23,671 bases of DNA, taken from positions 1-23,671 of the IMG/VR virus record IMGVR_UViG_3300032331_001329; one strand, written 5' to 3'. Every line of letters begins with the position of its first letter. Position 1 is the first letter of the stretch. Positions 11,249 through 21,405 of this stretch are shown here, one piece after another. The notes under the pieces were generated by a model. It ran no database searches, was not told the origin of the DNA, and saw nothing but the letters and a program-made list of their open reading frames with translations. This stretch comes from a virus. A program made the position numbers and the translations under genes.

Positions 11249-11564
11249 ATGTGGTATTGAACATAAAAAGCCCGGGAAATTCTGCTCCCGGGCTTGTGCT
11301 AATTCCAGGGAATGGAAAGATGAGCATAAACAGTTATTCTCTGAACGTCAAGCAGCCTATATGGCAAGAGAAGAATCTGAAGAACATAGAGCAAAGAAAT
11401 CTATTCAAACCAAAATGCTTGTCAAGGCAGGCATTATGGGTACAGGAGAAGCAACAGAGGATCCTGAAGATGTAATGACAAATCCAGATGATTACTTTTT
11501 TGTACCTCCAAGAGACGAGGGGGATAACTTTTCCGACGGAAATGATTATTGGGAGACTGTATAA
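11211..11564 (+). CDS. Zinc-finger protein of unknown function
   Basis: The protein has up to 117 residues (112 if started at ATG 11226). A single N-terminal zinc finger reads CPKCG-x4-KPGKFCSRACANSREW, a pattern common near the ends of phage HNH-type or DNA-associated proteins. The remainder is acidic and helical ('EESEEHRAKKSIQ'), ending with 'DDYFFVPPRDEGDNFSDGNDYW'. No nuclease motif was found in it. It overlaps the preceding zinc-ribbon gene by 23-38 bases. Three candidate ATGs (11211, 11214, 11226) precede the finger and the choice is uncertain. Its stop TAA is embedded in a TATAAATA late-promoter octamer. Confidence 0.65.
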   Translation: MMTRTMTTKNCPKCGIEHKKPGKFCSRACANSREWKDEHKQLFSERQAAYMAREESEEHRAKKSIQTKMLVKAGIMGTGEATEDPEDVMTNPDDYFFVPPRDEGDNFSDGNDYWETV

Positions 11565-11567
11565 ATA
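11560..11567 (+). promoter_or_regulatory. T4-type late promoter (TATAAATA)
   Basis: The octamer TATAAATA exactly matches the T4 late promoter -10 consensus recognised by the gp55-type sigma factor. It spans the stop codon of the upstream gene and lies 23 bases before the ATG at 11591, leaving a predicted leader of about 15-18 nt. It is the only perfect copy placed directly in front of a gene in this window. Confidence 0.6.
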
Positions 11568-11590
11568 CTAATTTAATATTGGTATTTTCG

Positions 11591-11989
11591 ATGTGGTTAT
11601 ACAAGAATACAGAGTTAGAAGTAGTTCCAGATGACGCATATGGTTATGTTTACATAATCACTAATACTATTACTAACCGCAGATATATTGGCAAGAAGTT
11701 ATTTTGGTTTCGTAAAACTAAAGTAGTCAAAGGTAAAAAGAAAAGATTAAAGGTAGAGTCGGATTGGAAAGACTATTGGTCTTCATCTGATGAACTTAAA
11801 GCCGATGTATTAAAACTTGGCGTAAAGAATTTTATCAGAGAGATATTGCACATATGTCCAAATAAAGGATTATGCAATTATCTAGAGGCAAGAGAACAAA
11901 TGGATAGACGAGTGTTGGAATCAGAAGATTATTATAATGGCCAAATACAGTGCAGAGTCCATAAAACCCATATAAGACAATTGAAATGA
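11591..11989 (+). CDS. GIY-YIG-type endonuclease (Seg-like, putative homing or free-standing)
   Basis: The protein has 132 residues from ATG 11591. The N-terminal 'YGYVYIITNTITNRRYIGKKLFW' fits the GIY-YIG core (here VYI...YIG). A basic segment with 'ESDWKDYWSSSDEL' follows, then 'KGLCNYLEAREQM', whose Glu is a candidate metal ligand, and 'DYYNGQIQCRVHK'. This pattern is shared by putative free-standing endonucleases of T4-like phages related to Seg/I-Tev enzymes. The ATG at 11591 is preferred over 11549, as the earlier start lies upstream of the late promoter. Ribosome binding is weak. The stop overlaps the next ATG. Homing activity is a guess; it may instead be a repair or DNA-degrading nuclease. 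Confidence 0.7.
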   Translation: MWLYKNTELEVVPDDAYGYVYIITNTITNRRYIGKKLFWFRKTKVVKGKKKRLKVESDWKDYWSSSDELKADVLKLGVKNFIREILHICPNKGLCNYLEAREQMDRRVLESEDYYNGQIQCRVHKTHIRQLK

Positions 11990-12636
11990 AAAAGACAATT
12001 GCTATTTTTGTAAAACATCCGGAATGCTCATTGGATTCCGCAAATGGAATAAAAACAGCATTGTCTTCAGAATATAATATTAAGACATTCTCAGTTAACG
12101 ATATCAAACCTAGTTTGTTTAAGGGTTTAGATGTTATTGCTTTCCCTGGTGGTATAGGTGACGCAGACAAATACTACAACTTTGTTGGGCGCAGGGCAGG
12201 CAATATGATTGAAGATTTTATAAACGATGGTGGACATTATCTTGGTATCTGTATGGGTGCTTATTGGGCAGGCCATCACTATTTAGATATATTAGATGGC
12301 GTTAAGTGCGAGCAATATATCAAAAGAAAAACTAGCGATATAAAACGTAGTTACAGTACAATTGCAACTATAGATTGGAATGGCAAAACTGAAGATATGT
12401 TCTTCTATGATGGTTGTGCATTAATTGGCGATGAACGAAAATTTAAAACTATTGCTCGTTATTCAAATGGCGATCCAATGGCAATAATTCAAAATAGAAT
12501 CGGTATCATAGGTTGCCACCCTGAGAGTACTAAGCACTGGTATGAAAAGCCCTACGATTACATTAATAAATATTGGCACAATGGGTCACATCACAATCTA
12601 TTACTAGATTTTACTAATACACTTACACAAAAATGA
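11986..12636 (+). CDS. Class I glutamine amidotransferase-like protein (BPL_N type)
   Basis: This 216-residue protein has the fold and triad of the class I amidotransferase superfamily. 'DVIAFPGGIGDADKYY' is followed by the nucleophile elbow 'YLGICMGAYWAG' (Cys89), and by 'GCHPES' (His178, Glu180). The combination of FPGG-GDA and GICMGAYWAG is closest to the biotin-protein-ligase N-terminal-type domain rather than to GuaA or PyrG. The triad looks intact, so ammonia release from glutamine or a related hydrolysis is possible, but no synthetase partner is adjacent. It overlaps its neighbours by 4 bases on both sides (ATGA junctions). The role in the phage is unknown. Confidence 0.75.
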   Translation: MKKTIAIFVKHPECSLDSANGIKTALSSEYNIKTFSVNDIKPSLFKGLDVIAFPGGIGDADKYYNFVGRRAGNMIEDFINDGGHYLGICMGAYWAGHHYLDILDGVKCEQYIKRKTSDIKRSYSTIATIDWNGKTEDMFFYDGCALIGDERKFKTIARYSNGDPMAIIQNRIGIIGCHPESTKHWYEKPYDYINKYWHNGSHHNLLLDFTNTLTQK

Positions 12637-13904
12637 TAATTACTAACGGAATTATTTTAAATCAGGGCATAACATTTATTCCCGAGCCGCCTGCAGTTTT
12701 CGGTGGTATCATAGTTTCTGCCAAAATCTATTCTACGTTCAATGGTGGACTACGTTCAGCAAATTATATTGTTCAATATAGTGATGATAACAGTACTTGG
12801 ACAACTGCTTTTGGCGGAGTCATGAGTAATAATTCTAGTTACGGTGAACAACTTGGTACAGTAACAACTGGTGGCTCAGGTACCGTTGGAAATGGCAGTT
12901 ATGGAAGTCACCTCTATTGGAGATACGTTGAAGGATCAGCGGTAGTCTCGCACCATCCGAGGACTTCTCGTATTACATTGATTAGTTCAACAGGTGTATC
13001 TTATAATCTTATAGTATATGTAGCAGATAATACTTCTGATTCCGGCGAATACGAAATTGGTACTGTTACTGGTACACCATTTCCTACTCCTACTGTTGAA
13101 TACTTAGTAGTAGGAGGCGGTGGAGGAGGTGGTGGTCGTCATGGAGGTGGCGGTGGCGCCGGCGGATATAGAACAGCAAGTGGGCTTGCGGTATCAGTCG
13201 GAACATATGCTGTAACAGTTGGTGCAGGTGGAACAGGATTTCTCAATAATGATCTCGGAGTTGCTGCTAACGGTACATCTGGTAACAACTCTGTATTCAG
13301 TTCTATAACCAGTGCAGGTGGTGGTGGCGGTGGTGGCGCTTCGTCTGGCTTGGCTATTGCAGGCGGCTCTGGTGGCGGCGGTCAATATGGCGGTTCTGGG
13401 GCGGCTGGAAATACACCATCAACTTCACCAAGTCAAGGAAATAGCGGCGGCTCAGCATCAACAACAGCCGATGCTTATCCTGGAGGTGGTGGTGGTGGAG
13501 CTTCTGCCGCAGGAGCTTCGTTTTCAGGCTCCACTGCGGGTAATGGCGGCGCTGGATCATCATCATCTATATCTGGCACGGCAACAATTTATTCTGGAGG
13601 TGGTGGTGGTGGCAGTTATATCAATGGGACACCAGGTTCTGGCGGTTTAGGCGGTGGTGGCAATGGTTCTGGTACAGGAACAAAAGGTGGAAATGGCACT
13701 GCAAACTTAGGCGGCGGAGGTGGAGGTGGCGGAAATACTGATGCACCTAATGCCGGTGGTGGTAATGGCGGTTCTGGTATTGTTATTATACGTTATTCAG
13801 ACGCCTATTCAGCAGCATCAGCAACTACTGGATCACCAAACGTAATAGTTGCAGGCGGATATAGAATATATAACTGGACCAGTTCTGGTTCAATAACTTT
13901 CTAA
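12633..13904 (+). CDS. Second glycine-rich adhesin / tail-tip protein
   Basis: The 423-residue protein begins 'NGIILNQGITFIPEPP' and has an N-terminal beta module with 'ANYIVQYSDDNSTWTTAF' and 'YWRYVEGS', resembling discoidin (F5/8C)-like carbohydrate-binding domains. From residue ~150 it enters a long glycine-rich domain, 'VEYLVVGGGGGGG' through many GGGGG/GGNGG blocks, closing with 'GIVIIRYSDAY' and 'YRIYNWTSSGSITF', a common ending of phage glycine-rich fibre domains. The role is probably receptor binding. It lies far from the first fibre cluster (610-2220) and shares the polyglycine design but little else. It starts inside the amidotransferase stop (ATGA) without a clear ribosome-binding site, so coupling is likely. 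Confidence 0.7.
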   Translation: MIITNGIILNQGITFIPEPPAVFGGIIVSAKIYSTFNGGLRSANYIVQYSDDNSTWTTAFGGVMSNNSSYGEQLGTVTTGGSGTVGNGSYGSHLYWRYVEGSAVVSHHPRTSRITLISSTGVSYNLIVYVADNTSDSGEYEIGTVTGTPFPTPTVEYLVVGGGGGGGGRHGGGGGAGGYRTASGLAVSVGTYAVTVGAGGTGFLNNDLGVAANGTSGNNSVFSSITSAGGGGGGGASSGLAIAGGSGGGGQYGGSGAAGNTPSTSPSQGNSGGSASTTADAYPGGGGGGASAAGASFSGSTAGNGGAGSSSSISGTATIYSGGGGGGSYINGTPGSGGLGGGGNGSGTGTKGGNGTANLGGGGGGGGNTDAPNAGGGNGGSGIVIIRYSDAYSAASATTGSPNVIVAGGYRIYNWTSSGSITF

Positions 13905-13939
13905 TATCATGCAAAATTATAACAGATTCGGAATTTAAA

Positions 13940-18339: not shown

Positions 18340-18358
18340 TTTGCTGTTCTATCCCTCT

Positions 18359-18387
18359 ATTATAGCACCTTTAGACTTCGGCGTCAA
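18359..18387 (-). promoter_or_regulatory. Strong sigma70 promoter for the minus-strand block
   Basis: On the minus strand, -35 TTGACG (18387-18382) and -10 TATAAT (18364-18359) are separated by a 17-bp spacer ending AAAGGTGC (extended -10 TGC). An A-tract and TGC precede the -35 box. Transcription should start near 18352 and read the fifteen minus-strand genes down to 14303. It is one of four matching promoters in the window. Confidence 0.85.
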
Positions 18388-18398
18388 GCATTTTTTTA

Positions 18399-18423
18399 AG
18401 ACCCGTTTGTCCATATGGGTACT
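18399..18423. other. Hairpin shared by the divergent promoters
   Basis: AGACCC (18399-18404) pairs with GGGT-A-CT (18417-18423; one bulged A) around a 12-base loop. It lies midway between the divergent promoters at 18359-18387 and 18433-18461, about 10 bases upstream of each -35 box. The same hairpin-then-promoter order is seen at 18778 and 21003. The stem is weaker than at 21003. Confidence 0.4.
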
Positions 18424-18432
18424 AAAAAGTGC

Positions 18433-18461
18433 TTGACAAGTTGACCAAAAGGTGCTATAAT
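18433..18461 (+). promoter_or_regulatory. Perfect sigma70 promoter
   Basis: A perfect TTGACA (18433-18438), 17-bp spacer ending AAAGGTGC and perfect TATAAT (18456-18461) with extended -10 TGC. An A-tract (AAAAAG) precedes it. Only six bases separate the -10 box from the ATG at 18468, so the expected transcript begins at or next to the start codon. Confidence 0.92.
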
Positions 18462-18467
18462 AACGAC

Positions 18468-18773
18468 ATGATGAGAAAGAAACGTTCTGACCGAAAGCAC
18501 ATTGTTTACAGTATCACGAATGCTGTTACTGGTGATTTCTACATTGGCATCACGCAGGGATCTCGAAAGAAAGATCTGCGTGTTCGTATATTGAAGCACA
18601 TTCAACGAGCTCGTACCGAGAATCGTTCTTGGGCGCTATGCGAAGCAATCCGAAAGTTTGGACCCGAGTCATTTCTAGCACAAGAGCTAGCAATTGTTCG
18701 TGGTAAGACACCTGCTCATAATTTAGAGCGAGCGCTGATTGCTGAGTATGCGCCAGCTTTGAATACACAGTAA
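18468..18773 (+). CDS. GIY-YIG endonuclease
   Basis: The protein has 101 residues from ATG 18468 (100 if started at the adjacent ATG 18471). It is a compact GIY-YIG nuclease domain: 'HIVYSITNAVTGDFYIGITQ' supplies the two core strands, 'RVRILKHIQRA' a catalytic-helix Arg/His region, and 'AHNLERALIAEYAPALNT' the metal-binding Glu and terminal Asn. No separate DNA-binding domain follows, so this resembles small phage GIY-YIG nucleases, which may be homing, repair or anti-competitor enzymes. It sits alone between a strong promoter and a small hairpin. No Shine-Dalgarno is available on the predicted mRNA. Confidence 0.85.
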   Translation: MMRKKRSDRKHIVYSITNAVTGDFYIGITQGSRKKDLRVRILKHIQRARTENRSWALCEAIRKFGPESFLAQELAIVRGKTPAHNLERALIAEYAPALNTQ

Positions 18774-18777
18774 CCAT

Positions 18778-18795
18778 AGACTCTAAAGGGTCTTT
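18778..18795 (+). terminator. Short hairpin with T-run after the GIY-YIG gene
   Basis: AGACTC (18778-18783) and GGGTCT (18788-18793; one G-T pair) form a 6-bp stem with a TAAA loop, followed by TT. It begins 4 bases after the stop codon of the nuclease gene and ends 2 bases before the TGC of the next promoter. It is probably a weak terminator. Confidence 0.45.
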
Positions 18796-18797
18796 GC

Positions 18798-18826
18798 TTG
18801 ACAGACACATCAAAATGTGCTATAAT
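18798..18826 (+). promoter_or_regulatory. Perfect sigma70 promoter
   Basis: TTGACA (18798-18803), 17-bp spacer ending AAATGTGC, and TATAAT (18821-18826) with extended -10 TGC. Transcription should begin near 18833, giving a leader of about 22 nt before ATG 18855. The spacer end is shared with the other three promoters except one base. Confidence 0.92.
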
Positions 18827-18854
18827 AGAGACTTAATTAATTAGAAAGCGTATT

Positions 18855-19106
18855 ATGCGTAGAAAAGAAATTATCAAAGGCCTAAAGAACTCTACTCGAA
18901 TTCGAGTGTTTCTTGATGGCGTTGGTCTTTATATGAGCATCAGCGATACTGAGAAGTGTTTCGCTACGAGCTCGCATAGAGTGGCGACACAAGTTGCTCT
19001 GCAACAACTTGTCAAAGATAATTGTAATGGCATTGGCACTACAGTTAAAGTTTATGATAATAAACTGCAATCTCAATCAATTCATGTACAGGTAGATTTA
19101 ATATAG
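18855..19106 (+). CDS. Small phage protein of unknown function
   Basis: The 83-residue protein begins 'MRRKEIIKGLKNSTRIRVFL' and contains 'DGVGLYMSISDTEKCFATSS' and a C-terminal 'TVKVYDNKLQSQSIHVQVDL'. It is basic at the start and beta-rich later; no family was recognised. It is the first gene of the second early cassette, 22 nt behind the predicted transcription start, with an AGAAAG ribosome-binding stretch. Confidence 0.7.
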   Translation: MRRKEIIKGLKNSTRIRVFLDGVGLYMSISDTEKCFATSSHRVATQVALQQLVKDNCNGIGTTVKVYDNKLQSQSIHVQVDLI

Positions 19107-19107
19107 A

Positions 19108-19740
19108 ATGAGTATATATCAAACAATTACTAATAAAACAATAGAAAAAACTTTTGTAACAAATCAATATTCATATTTTAATGATGTCTTTACTAAAGAT
19201 GAACTTAAAAAAATTATTGAAATCTCTACTAAAATTCCATTAGTGGATGGTTTAAGTGTTGATGGTAATAGTGGTCCTAGAGTGAGTAAAATAAATCACC
19301 AAGTATTAAATGAAAGTAATAAATGGATTTTTGATAGACTCAATCAACTTATTATGCAATGTAATTGGGAATTTTTTAACTACGATTTAACTGGATATGA
19401 ATATTATCAATATGCAGAATATCATGCAGAAGATACCGGCCATTATGACTATCATGTGGATATTATGTTTAGTGGTGATAATTTACGAGGAAGTGCTGTA
19501 GATTTTGAAACTAGAAAATTATCTGTAACACTTTTGTTAAATGAGCCTGGAGTTGATTTTGAGGGCGGAGAATTTTATACGAAGACGTATGGTAGTGATG
19601 GTGAGATTCCTTCTGGAATCGAATTAAAATCAGGAACAGCAATTTTATTTCCATCTTGGTTGATGCATAAGGTTGCTCCTGTTACTAAAGGAATTCGCAA
19701 GTCTTTAGTTGTTTGGGTGACAGGACCAAAATTTAGATAA
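19108..19740 (+). CDS. 2-oxoglutarate/Fe(II)-dependent dioxygenase (prolyl 4-hydroxylase-like)
   Basis: The protein has 210 residues. The iron site is His116-x-Asp118 ('HYDYHVDIMF') and His187 ('FPSWLMHKVAPVTKG'). Arg197 ('GIRKSLVVWV') is placed to bind the 2-oxoglutarate carboxylate. 'KLSVTLLLNEPGVDFEGGEF' is the typical double-stranded beta-helix core strand and Gly-Gly turn of PKHD-type hydroxylases. The substrate could be a protein residue or a nucleobase; nothing in the sequence decides. Such oxygenases are frequent in marine T4-like phages. It starts 1 base after the preceding stop in the same transcription unit. Confidence 0.88.
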   Translation: MSIYQTITNKTIEKTFVTNQYSYFNDVFTKDELKKIIEISTKIPLVDGLSVDGNSGPRVSKINHQVLNESNKWIFDRLNQLIMQCNWEFFNYDLTGYEYYQYAEYHAEDTGHYDYHVDIMFSGDNLRGSAVDFETRKLSVTLLLNEPGVDFEGGEFYTKTYGSDGEIPSGIELKSGTAILFPSWLMHKVAPVTKGIRKSLVVWVTGPKFR

Positions 19741-19781
19741 TTGATTATTTTTGCAATTTAACTTATAGAGGTATATTTAAT

Positions 19782-20027
19782 ATGACAAATACAGATTACA
19801 ATCTCGACGAATTCGTTAACAATAGCGGAACTAATGTCGACTTTACTAAGTATGAAGATGACGCAAGCACAATTGATATGTTTGAGCGTCTTCCAGCAAT
19901 GTTCGCAGCAAAATTCAAATGGGACACTTTGAATGAATCTGCAGACCCAGTATTGGTATGGGAGCTTGATGGGCAACCCGTAGCATGGTACGATTGCGAA
20001 ATGTTCGTTGGATATATAAAAGCATAG
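19782..20027 (+). CDS. Acidic small phage protein of unknown function
   Basis: This 81-residue, strongly acidic protein begins 'MTNTDYNLDEFVNNSGTNVD' and ends 'VLVWELDGQPVAWYDCEMFV' then GYIKA. The C-terminal half looks like a small beta sheet. No recognised family. GAGGT lies 9 bases upstream. A weak sigma70-like pair (TTGATT at 19741, TATAGA at 19764, 17-bp spacing) lies just in front, so it may have its own minor promoter. Confidence 0.65.
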   Translation: MTNTDYNLDEFVNNSGTNVDFTKYEDDASTIDMFERLPAMFAAKFKWDTLNESADPVLVWELDGQPVAWYDCEMFVGYIKA

Positions 20028-20035
20028 TAACTAAA

Positions 20036-20111
20036 ATTCCGTATTTTAAGGGTACTAACCTATTGATTTTAATGCGGAATCTGACACGCGAAATCGTAAA
20101 GTACCCTTAAA
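20036..20111 (+). other. Interleaved inverted repeats in the phosphoesterase 5' region
   Basis: Arm A ATTCCGTATT (20036-20045) pairs with AATGCGGAAT (20071-20080; one G-T). Arm B TTAAGGGTACT (20046-20056) pairs with AGTACCCTTAA (20100-20110). The order A-B-A'-B' is that of a pseudoknot or of two alternative folds. A TACCCTT copy at 20141-20147, just before ATG 20152, could compete for arm B. The 124-base gap (20028-20151) contains no gene. Confidence 0.5.
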
Positions 20112-20151
20112 TAGACGTTTTACTTAACAATATACCTATATACCCTTTTCA

Positions 20152-21000
20152 ATGAAAATAGCACTTGCCAGCGATTTACACTTAGAATTTCAAGATATCA
20201 ACATTCAAAATACAGAGAATGCTGATGTCCTAATACTATCCGGTGATATCCTTGTTGCCGAGGACCTGCACAACCATTCTGAAGAAAAGGTAAAAATTGC
20301 TGTCATGATTGATAGCTTGAGCCGTAGACAAGACACGGCACTACGTTTCCGTGACTTTATGAAACGCTGTAGCTTTCAATTCCCGCATGTTGTGGTAATT
20401 GCAGGTAATCACGAATTTTATCATGGTAATTGGAAAGCCAGTATCCAGTACCTGCGTGATGAATATAGTAAGTTTCCAAACATCTATTTCCTTGAGCAAG
20501 AACTTAAGGTCATTGATGATGTAACCTTCATTGGTGCCACATTGTGGACTGACTGCAATAAAGGCGACCCACTTACACTACACTCATTGGGTGATATGAT
20601 GAATGACTTTAGAATCATTCGCAATGATGAACTTGGATTTACTAAGTTGCGTCCTGCTCATACAGCACAACGCCATCAACAAACCATTAGTTATTTTAAA
20701 TCTGTATTAGCTGACAGAAAAGATAATAAGGTTGTTGTGGTCGGACATCATGCACCAAGTACTTTAAGTATTCACGATAGGTATAAGCATCCAGTTCATT
20801 CATTAATGAATGGTGGATACCATAGTGATCTGAGTGATTTTATTTTAGATCATCCGCAGATTAAACTCTGGACCCACGGACATATGCATGATCCTAGTGA
20901 TTATATGATTGGAGATACTCGTGTAGTTTGTAACCCGCGTGGATATGCTGGACACGATGAACAAGCTGACGTGTTTGAATTGAAATTCCTAGAGGTCTGA
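20152..21000 (+). CDS. Calcineurin-like metallophosphoesterase
   Basis: The protein has 282 residues with all metallophosphoesterase motifs in order: Asp8-x-His10 (ASDLHLEF), Gly31-Asp32 (LSGDIL), Gly-Asn86-His87-Glu88 (AGNHEFYHG), Gly-His199-His200 (VVGHHAP) and Gly-His244-x-His246 (THGHMHDP). The dimetal site is therefore complete. It could hydrolyse phosphodiesters or phosphomonoesters of nucleotides, nucleic acids or a signalling molecule. No extra domain gives specificity. There is no Shine-Dalgarno in front of the ATG (the preceding bases are TATACCCTTTTCA), so initiation may depend on the structured leader. A strong hairpin terminator follows 2 bases after its stop codon. Confidence 0.9.
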   Translation: MKIALASDLHLEFQDINIQNTENADVLILSGDILVAEDLHNHSEEKVKIAVMIDSLSRRQDTALRFRDFMKRCSFQFPHVVVIAGNHEFYHGNWKASIQYLRDEYSKFPNIYFLEQELKVIDDVTFIGATLWTDCNKGDPLTLHSLGDMMNDFRIIRNDELGFTKLRPAHTAQRHQQTISYFKSVLADRKDNKVVVVGHHAPSTLSIHDRYKHPVHSLMNGGYHSDLSDFILDHPQIKLWTHGHMHDPSDYMIGDTRVVCNPRGYAGHDEQADVFELKFLEV

Positions 21001-21002
21001 CC

Positions 21003-21031
21003 AAGTACCCGACTCTTTTGCTCGGGTACTT
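21003..21031 (+). terminator. Strong hairpin terminator
   Basis: A perfect 10-bp stem, AAGTACCCGA (21003-21012) and TCGGGTACTT (21022-21031), has a 9-base loop CTCTTTTGC. It follows the phosphoesterase stop by 2 bases, continues with ACTTTG, and lies 9 bases before the next -35 box. The downstream T-run is short. Confidence 0.65.
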
Positions 21032-21040
21032 ACTTTGTGC

Positions 21041-21069
21041 TTGACAAGGCAACCGAAAGGTGCTATAAT
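21041..21069 (+). promoter_or_regulatory. Perfect sigma70 promoter
   Basis: TTGACA (21041-21046), 17-bp spacer ending GAAAGGTGC, and TATAAT (21064-21069) with extended -10 TGC. It drives the final cluster of small genes; predicted start near 21076, with a leader of about 21 nt containing AAGGAA before ATG 21097. Confidence 0.93.
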
Positions 21070-21096
21070 AGAAGCATAAACAGTAAGGAACCCCAA

Positions 21097-21405
21097 ATGT
21101 CTAAGCTCTTAATTACTACTCAGATTCACGAAAACTATGGTGCCCATGATTGGGACGGCGAAGGCGAGTGTCCTCAGTATTGGAAAGCCAAGGGCGGCAA
21201 CGATTATGTCGTTAAGAAGTTCAAAGGCGATGCTACTATGGCTGTCATGAGTCTACGATCACAGATTGAGTGCGACAACGATCACTTCCGCGAATCTATT
21301 ATTGATTGGAAAATCGTGTCTGACGACTATCTCACAGAGTTTGAGAAAGATCAACTCGGCTATATGGGCAAGATTCAGTATGGCCCTAAAGAACTCGTGT
21401 GGTAA
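21097..21405 (+). CDS. Conserved phage protein of unknown function
   Basis: The 102-residue protein from ATG 21097 reads 'MSKLLITTQIHENYGAHDWD' followed by 'GEGECPQYWKAKGGNDYVVK' and a helical part ending 'YGPKELVW'. The start is decided by AAGGAA about 6 bases upstream on the leader; a longer frame from 21037 begins upstream of the promoter -35 and is excluded. The 'ITTQIHENYGAHDW' opening recurs in phage proteins but I know of no function. First gene of the cassette. Confidence 0.75.
   Translation: MSKLLITTQIHENYGAHDWDGEGECPQYWKAKGGNDYVVKKFKGDATMAVMSLRSQIECDNDHFRESIIDWKIVSDDYLTEFEKDQLGYMGKIQYGPKELVW

What the first reader, a model, noticed from the sequence alone, without database searches (positions are those of the whole stretch)
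18359..21069. Four near-identical strong promoters, each behind a hairpin: PeSL-like mobile early cassettes
The promoters at 18359-18387 (minus), 18433-18461, 18798-18826 and 21041-21069 share TGCTTGACR, a 17-bp spacer ending AAAGGTGC (AAATGTGC in one), and TATAAT. Conservation extends into the spacer, where a generic sigma70 promoter would not need it. A hairpin lies upstream of each -35 box, its near arm beginning GGGT (GGGTACT or GGGTCT). Established knowledge: promoter-early stem-loop (PeSL) elements in T4-type phages act as recombination points for shuffling early genes. Inference: this phage uses the same device with its own sequence version, including a divergent pair sharing one hairpin.
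Basis: partly seen in the sequence, partly recalled or inferred. Interest (0 to 1): 0.72.

Follow-up and report, generated by a model that had tools for sequence, protein, structure and literature searches.

The report
Hairpin-promoter cassettes that shuffle phage genes
An uncultivated T4-like phage carries many copies of a short unit (a DNA hairpin followed by a very strong host-type promoter) in front of its small accessory genes, and comparing related phages shows genes being swapped, lost and in one case flipped around at these units, much like a device known from a few laboratory T4-type phages.

Summary
Confirmed: four exact TGCTTGACR-N17-TATAAT promoters lie where stated (0 expected by chance), each just behind a hairpin; two diverge from one shared hairpin. 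In related phage contigs the same unit recurs up to 12 times in one roughly 12-kb region of small genes. There the hairpin is specific to this promoter class: 23/23 versus 1/30 other TTGAC/TATAAT sites. A relative with about 85% DNA identity carries T4 gp23, so the phage is T4-type.

Gene neighbours change at the units: the GIY-YIG gene with its promoter and shared hairpin is inverted between the window and all five relatives, both ends lying inside inverted promoter units; other genes come and go at hairpin bases. But many breakpoints lie elsewhere and the statistical enrichment is weak. The hairpins have poorer T-runs than those of RB49, so terminator function, a defining part of promoter-early stem-loops (PeSLs), is doubtful for most.

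Best reading: a PeSL-type cassette system of an uncultivated T4-type lineage, with its own sequence and two twists: a divergent, inversion-prone pair, and a leaderless GIY-YIG endonuclease gene that in many phages sits between two such promoters. New variant of a known kind; early timing and termination untested.

The parts
18359..18390 (-). Strong extended sigma70-type promoter (TGCTTGACG-N17-TATAAT) reading left, into a 43-codon ORF (MEYSMICVIRAVHGK...) and the WYL_2-like gene
18401..18420 (.). Hairpin shared by the divergent promoters (ACCCGT-TTGTCCAT-ATGGGT); hybrid of a GTACCC/GGGTAC arm and a GACCC/GGGTC arm
18430..18461 (+). Strong extended promoter driving the GIY-YIG gene; -10 ends 6 nt before the ATG (leaderless)
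18468..18773 (+). Small GIY-YIG endonuclease-like gene (101 aa); inverted together with its promoter and hairpin relative to five related phage contigs
18778..18793 (+). Hairpin AGACTC-TAAA-GGGTCT directly after the GIY-YIG stop codon
18795..18826 (+). Strong extended promoter (variant spacer ending AAATGTGC) for gene 18855-19106; right end of the inverted segment
18855..19106 (+). Small gene of unknown function (83 aa), first gene behind the third cassette
21003..21031 (+). Perfect 10-bp hairpin AAGTACCCGA-CTCTTTTGC-TCGGGTACTT, starting 2 nt after the stop of the metallophosphoesterase gene; one stem pair is C-G here and T-A in relatives
21038..21069 (+). Strong extended promoter for gene 21097-21405
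21070..21096 (+). Conserved leader with ribosome-binding site (AGAAGCATAAACAGTAAGGAAC), the downstream end of the cassette
21097..21405 (+). Small gene of unknown function (102 aa) behind the fourth cassette; present behind the orthologous cassette in all relatives that reach this far

Best explanation
The four sites are copies of one composite regulatory cassette of a T4-type phage: a hairpin, then a few nucleotides later a near-consensus extended sigma70 promoter (TGCTTGACR, 17-nt spacer ending AAAGGTGC, TATAAT), then a short conserved leader, usually with a ribosome-binding site. Each copy lets unmodified host RNA polymerase transcribe one or a few small accessory genes, presumably immediately after infection (inferred). 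Because the copies are alike over about 90-100 bp, homologous recombination between them can exchange, delete or (between inverted copies) flip the genes in between. This works like the PeSL cassettes of RB49 and other T4-type phages. Shown by sequence: cassette, copy number, hairpin specificity, partner switching, inversion. Inferred: early timing and the recombination mechanism. Doubtful for most copies: that the hairpin is an efficient terminator.
For: Four exact copies, 0 expected. Eleven viral contigs with the strict core; 10-12 copies clustered in G003 and G004. Hairpin in 23/23 copies of this promoter class vs 1/30 other TTGAC/TATAAT sites in the same genomes, and 16-24% of random 45-mers. 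Stem kept through a C-G to T-A change on both sides in orthologues. Inversion of window 18354-18843 relative to all five relatives, both ends in inverted cassettes. Same gene with different upstream partner at the cassette: 18798, 21041, and G003 53720 vs G004 112120; same upstream part with different downstream gene: G004 102240, window 18387. Cassette absent from bacterial genomes apart from 3 unrelated MAG hits. T4 gp23 in G003, E 2.6e-144. RB49 scanned the same way shows the same order, stem-loop then TTGACA.
Against: Most synteny breakpoints between these genomes lie outside cassettes; enrichment p = 0.07, 0.29 and 0.02, and the comparisons are not independent. The oxygenase and the extra gene in G004 are not bounded by two cassettes. 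T-runs after the hairpins are short (0-6 T of 8, mostly 1-4, versus 5-7 in RB49) and the terminator scan calls none of the window hairpins. The divergent hairpin cannot terminate either neighbouring gene. No transcription data.
Confidence: 0.72

Rival explanations
1. Ordinary strong phage early promoters with incidental terminators: similarity among copies reflects selection for host polymerase binding and shared ancestry by gene duplication, and gene-content differences arise by illegitimate recombination anywhere in a dispensable region. The cassettes are not recombination points.
For: Most breakpoints lie outside cassettes. First half of the spacer is near background within the window. T4 early promoters also carry extra consensus beyond the sigma70 boxes (PMC2988021). 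The metallophosphoesterase loss in G003/G008 has only short microhomology at its left end.
Against: The inversion has both ends in inverted cassettes, and partners switch at several other cassettes. Spacer and leader similarity exceed what sigma70 needs.
Confidence: 0.2
2. The mobility belongs to the GIY-YIG gene: a small endonuclease gene that carries its own promoter moves by homing or end repair, and the inversion is an independent re-insertion in the other orientation.
For: 75 viral loci carry relatives of the gene in differing neighbourhoods. In 32 of 37 non-redundant loci a near-consensus promoter stands directly upstream, its -10 box ending 5-7 nt before the ATG in nearly all. The two promoters that flank it are more alike (10.9 of 17) than its promoters are to others of the same locus (7.8) or of other loci (6.9).
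Against: DNA identity of the inverted segment (about 86%) equals that of the flanks, which fits inversion in place rather than a new arrival. Partner switching also occurs at cassettes without this gene. The protein is 101 aa with no recognised DNA-targeting domain.
Confidence: 0.12
3. The hairpins are DNA structures that matter in themselves (cruciform, replication-fork stalling or protein binding), not terminators; the divergent pair keeps one although no gene reads into it.
For: The divergent hairpin is kept in the window and all five relatives; weak T-runs; a hairpin loop is inverted between G003 49542 and G004 106500; deletion and replacement ends fall at hairpin bases.
Against: Most hairpins lie directly after a stop codon on the transcribed strand, the place of a terminator; some have 4-6 T of 8. 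No DNA-level test was possible.
Confidence: 0.2

Closest known systems
PeSL (promoter-early stem-loop) elements of T4-type phages RB49/phi1, T4/PST, KVP40/nt-1 (Arbiol et al. 2010, 10.1093/gbe/evq006; Comeau et al. 2014, 10.1093/gbe/evu129; originals not held, known from memory and from the account in PMC4503421)
   Same: Stem-loop immediately upstream of a strong sigma70-like early promoter; many copies in regions of small non-essential genes; relatives differ by gene gain, loss and replacement at these points; T4-type phage.
   Different: Own sequence (ACCC/GGGT arms, TGCTTGACR...AAAGGTGC). T-runs poor, so termination doubtful. A divergent pair shares one hairpin and is flipped between relatives. 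Hybrid hairpins with unlike arms.
T4 early promoters (Pe)
   Same: Combined UP/-35/TGn/-10 consensus with extra conserved positions, made for unmodified host polymerase (PMC2988021).
   Different: Different extra consensus; here each is coupled to a hairpin and a conserved leader.
Free-standing GIY-YIG endonuclease genes of T4-type phages (seg type)
   Same: GIY-YIG domain (PF01541, E 2.9e-5) in a mobile neighbourhood.
   Different: Only about 100 aa with no DNA-binding domain recognised; leaderless strong promoter; no match in 50,697 named phage records.

Membership tests
PeSL | Strong sigma70-like promoter | tested here: met
   11-12 of 12 hexamer matches with TGn
PeSL | Stem-loop directly adjacent, upstream of the promoter | tested here: met
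   23/23 versus 1/30 in other promoters; same order found in RB49
PeSL | Stem-loop is an effective transcription terminator | tested here: inconclusive
   No terminator call on the window hairpins; short T-runs compared with RB49; no assay possible
PeSL | Multiple copies in a hyperplastic region of small genes | tested here: met
   4 in the window; about 10 in G003 and 12 in G004 in one region
PeSL | Carried by a T4-type phage | tested here: met
   gp23 in G003, E 2.6e-144; nearest named gp23 from Methylophilales phage Melnitz, 67%. Tested on a relative, because the window is a 23.7-kb fragment
PeSL | Serves as the point of gene shuffling between relatives | tested here: inconclusive
   Inversion and partner switching at cassettes, but weak overall breakpoint enrichment
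PeSL | Promoter active early in infection | not testable with these tools
   No culture or transcript data
PeSL | Mini-circles from recombination between cassettes | not testable with these tools
   Needs reads or particles

The most novel reading that the evidence does not exclude
The small leaderless GIY-YIG endonuclease is the engine of cassette shuffling: expressed first, it nicks or cuts at or near the shared hairpin-promoter units, so that repair between copies swaps, deletes or flips the genes between them. That would be a self-contained, nuclease-driven gene-cassette system spread across many uncultivated phages.
Probability: 0.08. Interest if true: 0.78.

Novelty: new variant of a known kind. 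Interest (0 to 1): 0.46.

Why it matters
PeSL shuffling was proposed from a few pairs of cultured phages. Here the same architecture appears in uncultivated T4-type phages, with enough related contigs to see partner switching, an inversion and hybrid hairpins. It suggests that hairpin-promoter cassettes are a general way for large phages to trade accessory genes without losing early expression, and it gives a defined locus where this can be tested.

Tried and rejected
A simple explanation of the odd AAATGTGC copy (18798) as half of the relatives' leftward promoter: spacer identity is a tie by eye (about 12 of 18 to either parent), so not claimed. Universal cassette-bounded indels: rejected, since the oxygenase (19108-19740), the extra gene of G004 and several other differences are not bounded by cassettes. 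Melnitz, the nearest named phage by gp23, was scanned for the same unit: it has TTGAC/TATAAT promoters but not this cassette sequence. Host promoter origin: rejected, because the core pattern is nearly absent from bacterial genomes. A terminator-only reading of all hairpins: rejected for the divergent pair. The PeSL papers themselves were not in the library. One search gave nothing because of a wrong pattern and was redone; one search stopped before its RB49 part, which was redone.

Full report
OBSERVATION. The pattern TGCTTGACR-N15-19-TATAAT occurs four times in 23,671 bases and never in 100 dinucleotide-preserving shuffles; they are the four best sigma70-like sites of the region and all have TGn. 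Each has a hairpin just upstream: 18401-18420 (shared by the divergent pair), 18778-18793, and 21003-21031, the last a perfect 10-bp stem. Taken alone the 18798 hairpin is weak (z -1.1).

SPREAD. The strict core TGCTTGACR-N9-11-AAAGGTGCTATAAT hits 15 stretches in 11 of 2.9 million viral contigs, and only three unrelated Clostridia MAG contigs among 84,980 prokaryote genomes. Five contigs (G003, G004, G007, G008, G010) are close relatives: about 80-90% DNA identity over most of the window where they overlap it. In G003 and G004 the unit recurs about 10-12 times in one roughly 12-kb region of small genes. Aligned copies in G004 show a unit of about 90-100 bp: hairpin with ACCC/GGGT core, TGCTTGACR, spacer ending CCAAAAGGTGC, TATAAT, then AGAGGCATAAACAGYAA, often with a ribosome-binding site.

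HAIRPIN SPECIFICITY. The same genomes hold other TTGAC/TATAAT sites (mostly GATGTTATAAT or CTGTTATAAT type, or chance sites inside genes). Upstream hairpins with at least three G-C pairs occur in 23 of 23 copies of the present class and 1 of 30 of the others (Fisher p 4e-14; orthologous copies in G003 and G004 are counted separately, so the p-value is optimistic); random 45-mers give 16-24%. The hairpin letters vary while pairing is kept: the 21041 orthologues change C-G to T-A on both sides. Several hairpins are hybrids, with a GTACCC-type left arm and a GGGTCT-type right arm, leaving only a 4-bp core.

WHAT KIND OF PHAGE. G003 (202 kb) carries T4 gp23 (PF07068, E 2.6e-144), closest among named phages to Methylophilales phage Melnitz (67%), then Pelagibacter and Synechococcus T4-type phages. 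The window is therefore very probably a fragment of a T4-type phage genome (inference through G003). The host is unknown.

SHUFFLING. (1) Window 18354-18843 aligns in inverted orientation in all five relatives. There the order is X(-) <-P1- GIY(-) <-P2-hairpin-P3-> Y(+); in the window it is X(-) <-P-hairpin-P-> GIY(+) P-> Y(+). Both ends lie in cassettes that are inverted relative to each other, the layout expected for recombination between inverted repeats. More distant phages (L094-L099, where GIY is 67-69% identical) have GIY and Y collinear as in the window, so the flipped state of the relatives is probably derived (inference). (2) The gene behind 21041 has the metallophosphoesterase upstream in the window, G004 and G007 but not in G003 or G008, and the right end of that change lies at the hairpin base. 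(3) G003 53720 and G004 112120 have the same downstream gene but different upstream genes, the change starting at the hairpin base. (4) The upstream half of P3 is joined to three different downstream genes in three genomes. Against this, many other breakpoints are outside cassettes, and overall enrichment is marginal (p 0.07, 0.29, 0.02 for three overlapping comparisons).

SPACERS. Over 39 dereplicated phage contigs, spacers are more alike within a contig than between contigs (6.71 vs 5.51 of 17; permutation mean 5.53, sd 0.09), also in the first 9 nt (3.13 vs 2.64 of 9). This fits homogenisation by recombination or shared descent of cassettes within a phage, and exceeds what polymerase binding requires; the effect is modest.

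TERMINATION. RB49 scanned with the same script shows classic PeSLs: long G-C stems with 5-7 T in the next 8 nt, then TTGACA. In the present group the stems are shorter and the following 8 nt hold 0-6 T, mostly 1-4; the terminator scan calls none of the window hairpins. The divergent hairpin lies between two outward promoters, where no annotated gene reads into it. Terminator function is therefore open: plausible for 21003-21031 and its orthologues, unlikely for the divergent hairpin.

MECHANISM. Best-supported view: each cassette gives its gene immediate strong transcription by host polymerase, and its repetition makes it a site for homologous recombination, so genes can be exchanged while expression is preserved. 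Promoter function rests on sequence (high confidence), recombination on comparative genomics (moderate), timing on analogy with T4-type phages.

THE GIY-YIG PASSENGER. The 101-aa GIY-YIG gene has 75 relatives in viral contigs and none in named phages. In 32 of 37 non-redundant loci a near-consensus promoter stands upstream, its -10 box ending 5-7 nt before the ATG in nearly all, so the mRNA would be leaderless; in 20 of 37 another promoter follows the stop codon. In 14 loci compared, these two promoters are more alike (10.9 of 17 spacer positions) than GIY promoters are to others of the same locus (7.8) or to other loci (6.9). The gene thus commonly sits between direct repeats of the local promoter, as expected if it entered by a crossover at a cassette or if it provokes recombination there; the present data do not separate these.

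KNOWN OR NEW. The architecture is that of PeSLs. Membership is met for promoter, position of the stem-loop, copy number and phage type; inconclusive for termination and for shuffling; untestable for timing and circles. I file it as a new variant that works like a PeSL.

Noticed in passing
18468-18773 and L085-L159: Small GIY-YIG gene with a leaderless promoter (ATG 6 nt after the -10 box) in most of 37 non-redundant viral loci; absent from named phages.
   Followed up: partly
19087-19783: 2OG-Fe(II) oxygenase gene 19108-19740 is present only in the window and is bounded by an imperfect 18-nt direct repeat (19087-19104 / 19766-19783), suggesting insertion by recombination at a short repeat.
   Followed up: partly
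L053:9505-9530 vs L067:6465-6490 (G003 49542, G004 106500): Orthologous hairpins have the inner loop inverted (TCTTTTG vs CAAAAGA) between the same arms CCCGAG...CTCGGG.
   Followed up: no
20048-20109: Widely spaced inverted repeat AAGGGTACT...AGTACCCTT with the same letters as the cassette hairpins, upstream of the metallophosphoesterase gene and without a promoter.
   Followed up: no
L161, L163, L165, L169: Other large phage contigs carry 13-18 different TTGAC/TATAAT promoters within 12 kb, many with a short palindrome inside the spacer (GGTTGGTAAAACC).
   Followed up: no
11549-11989: SegE-like GIY-YIG endonuclease gene (PF19835, E 3e-36).
   Followed up: no
13709-13910: The 3' end of the glycine-rich gene 12633-13904 recurs about ten times in G003 and G004 at 69-79% identity, probably a shared tail-protein C-terminus.
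   Followed up: no
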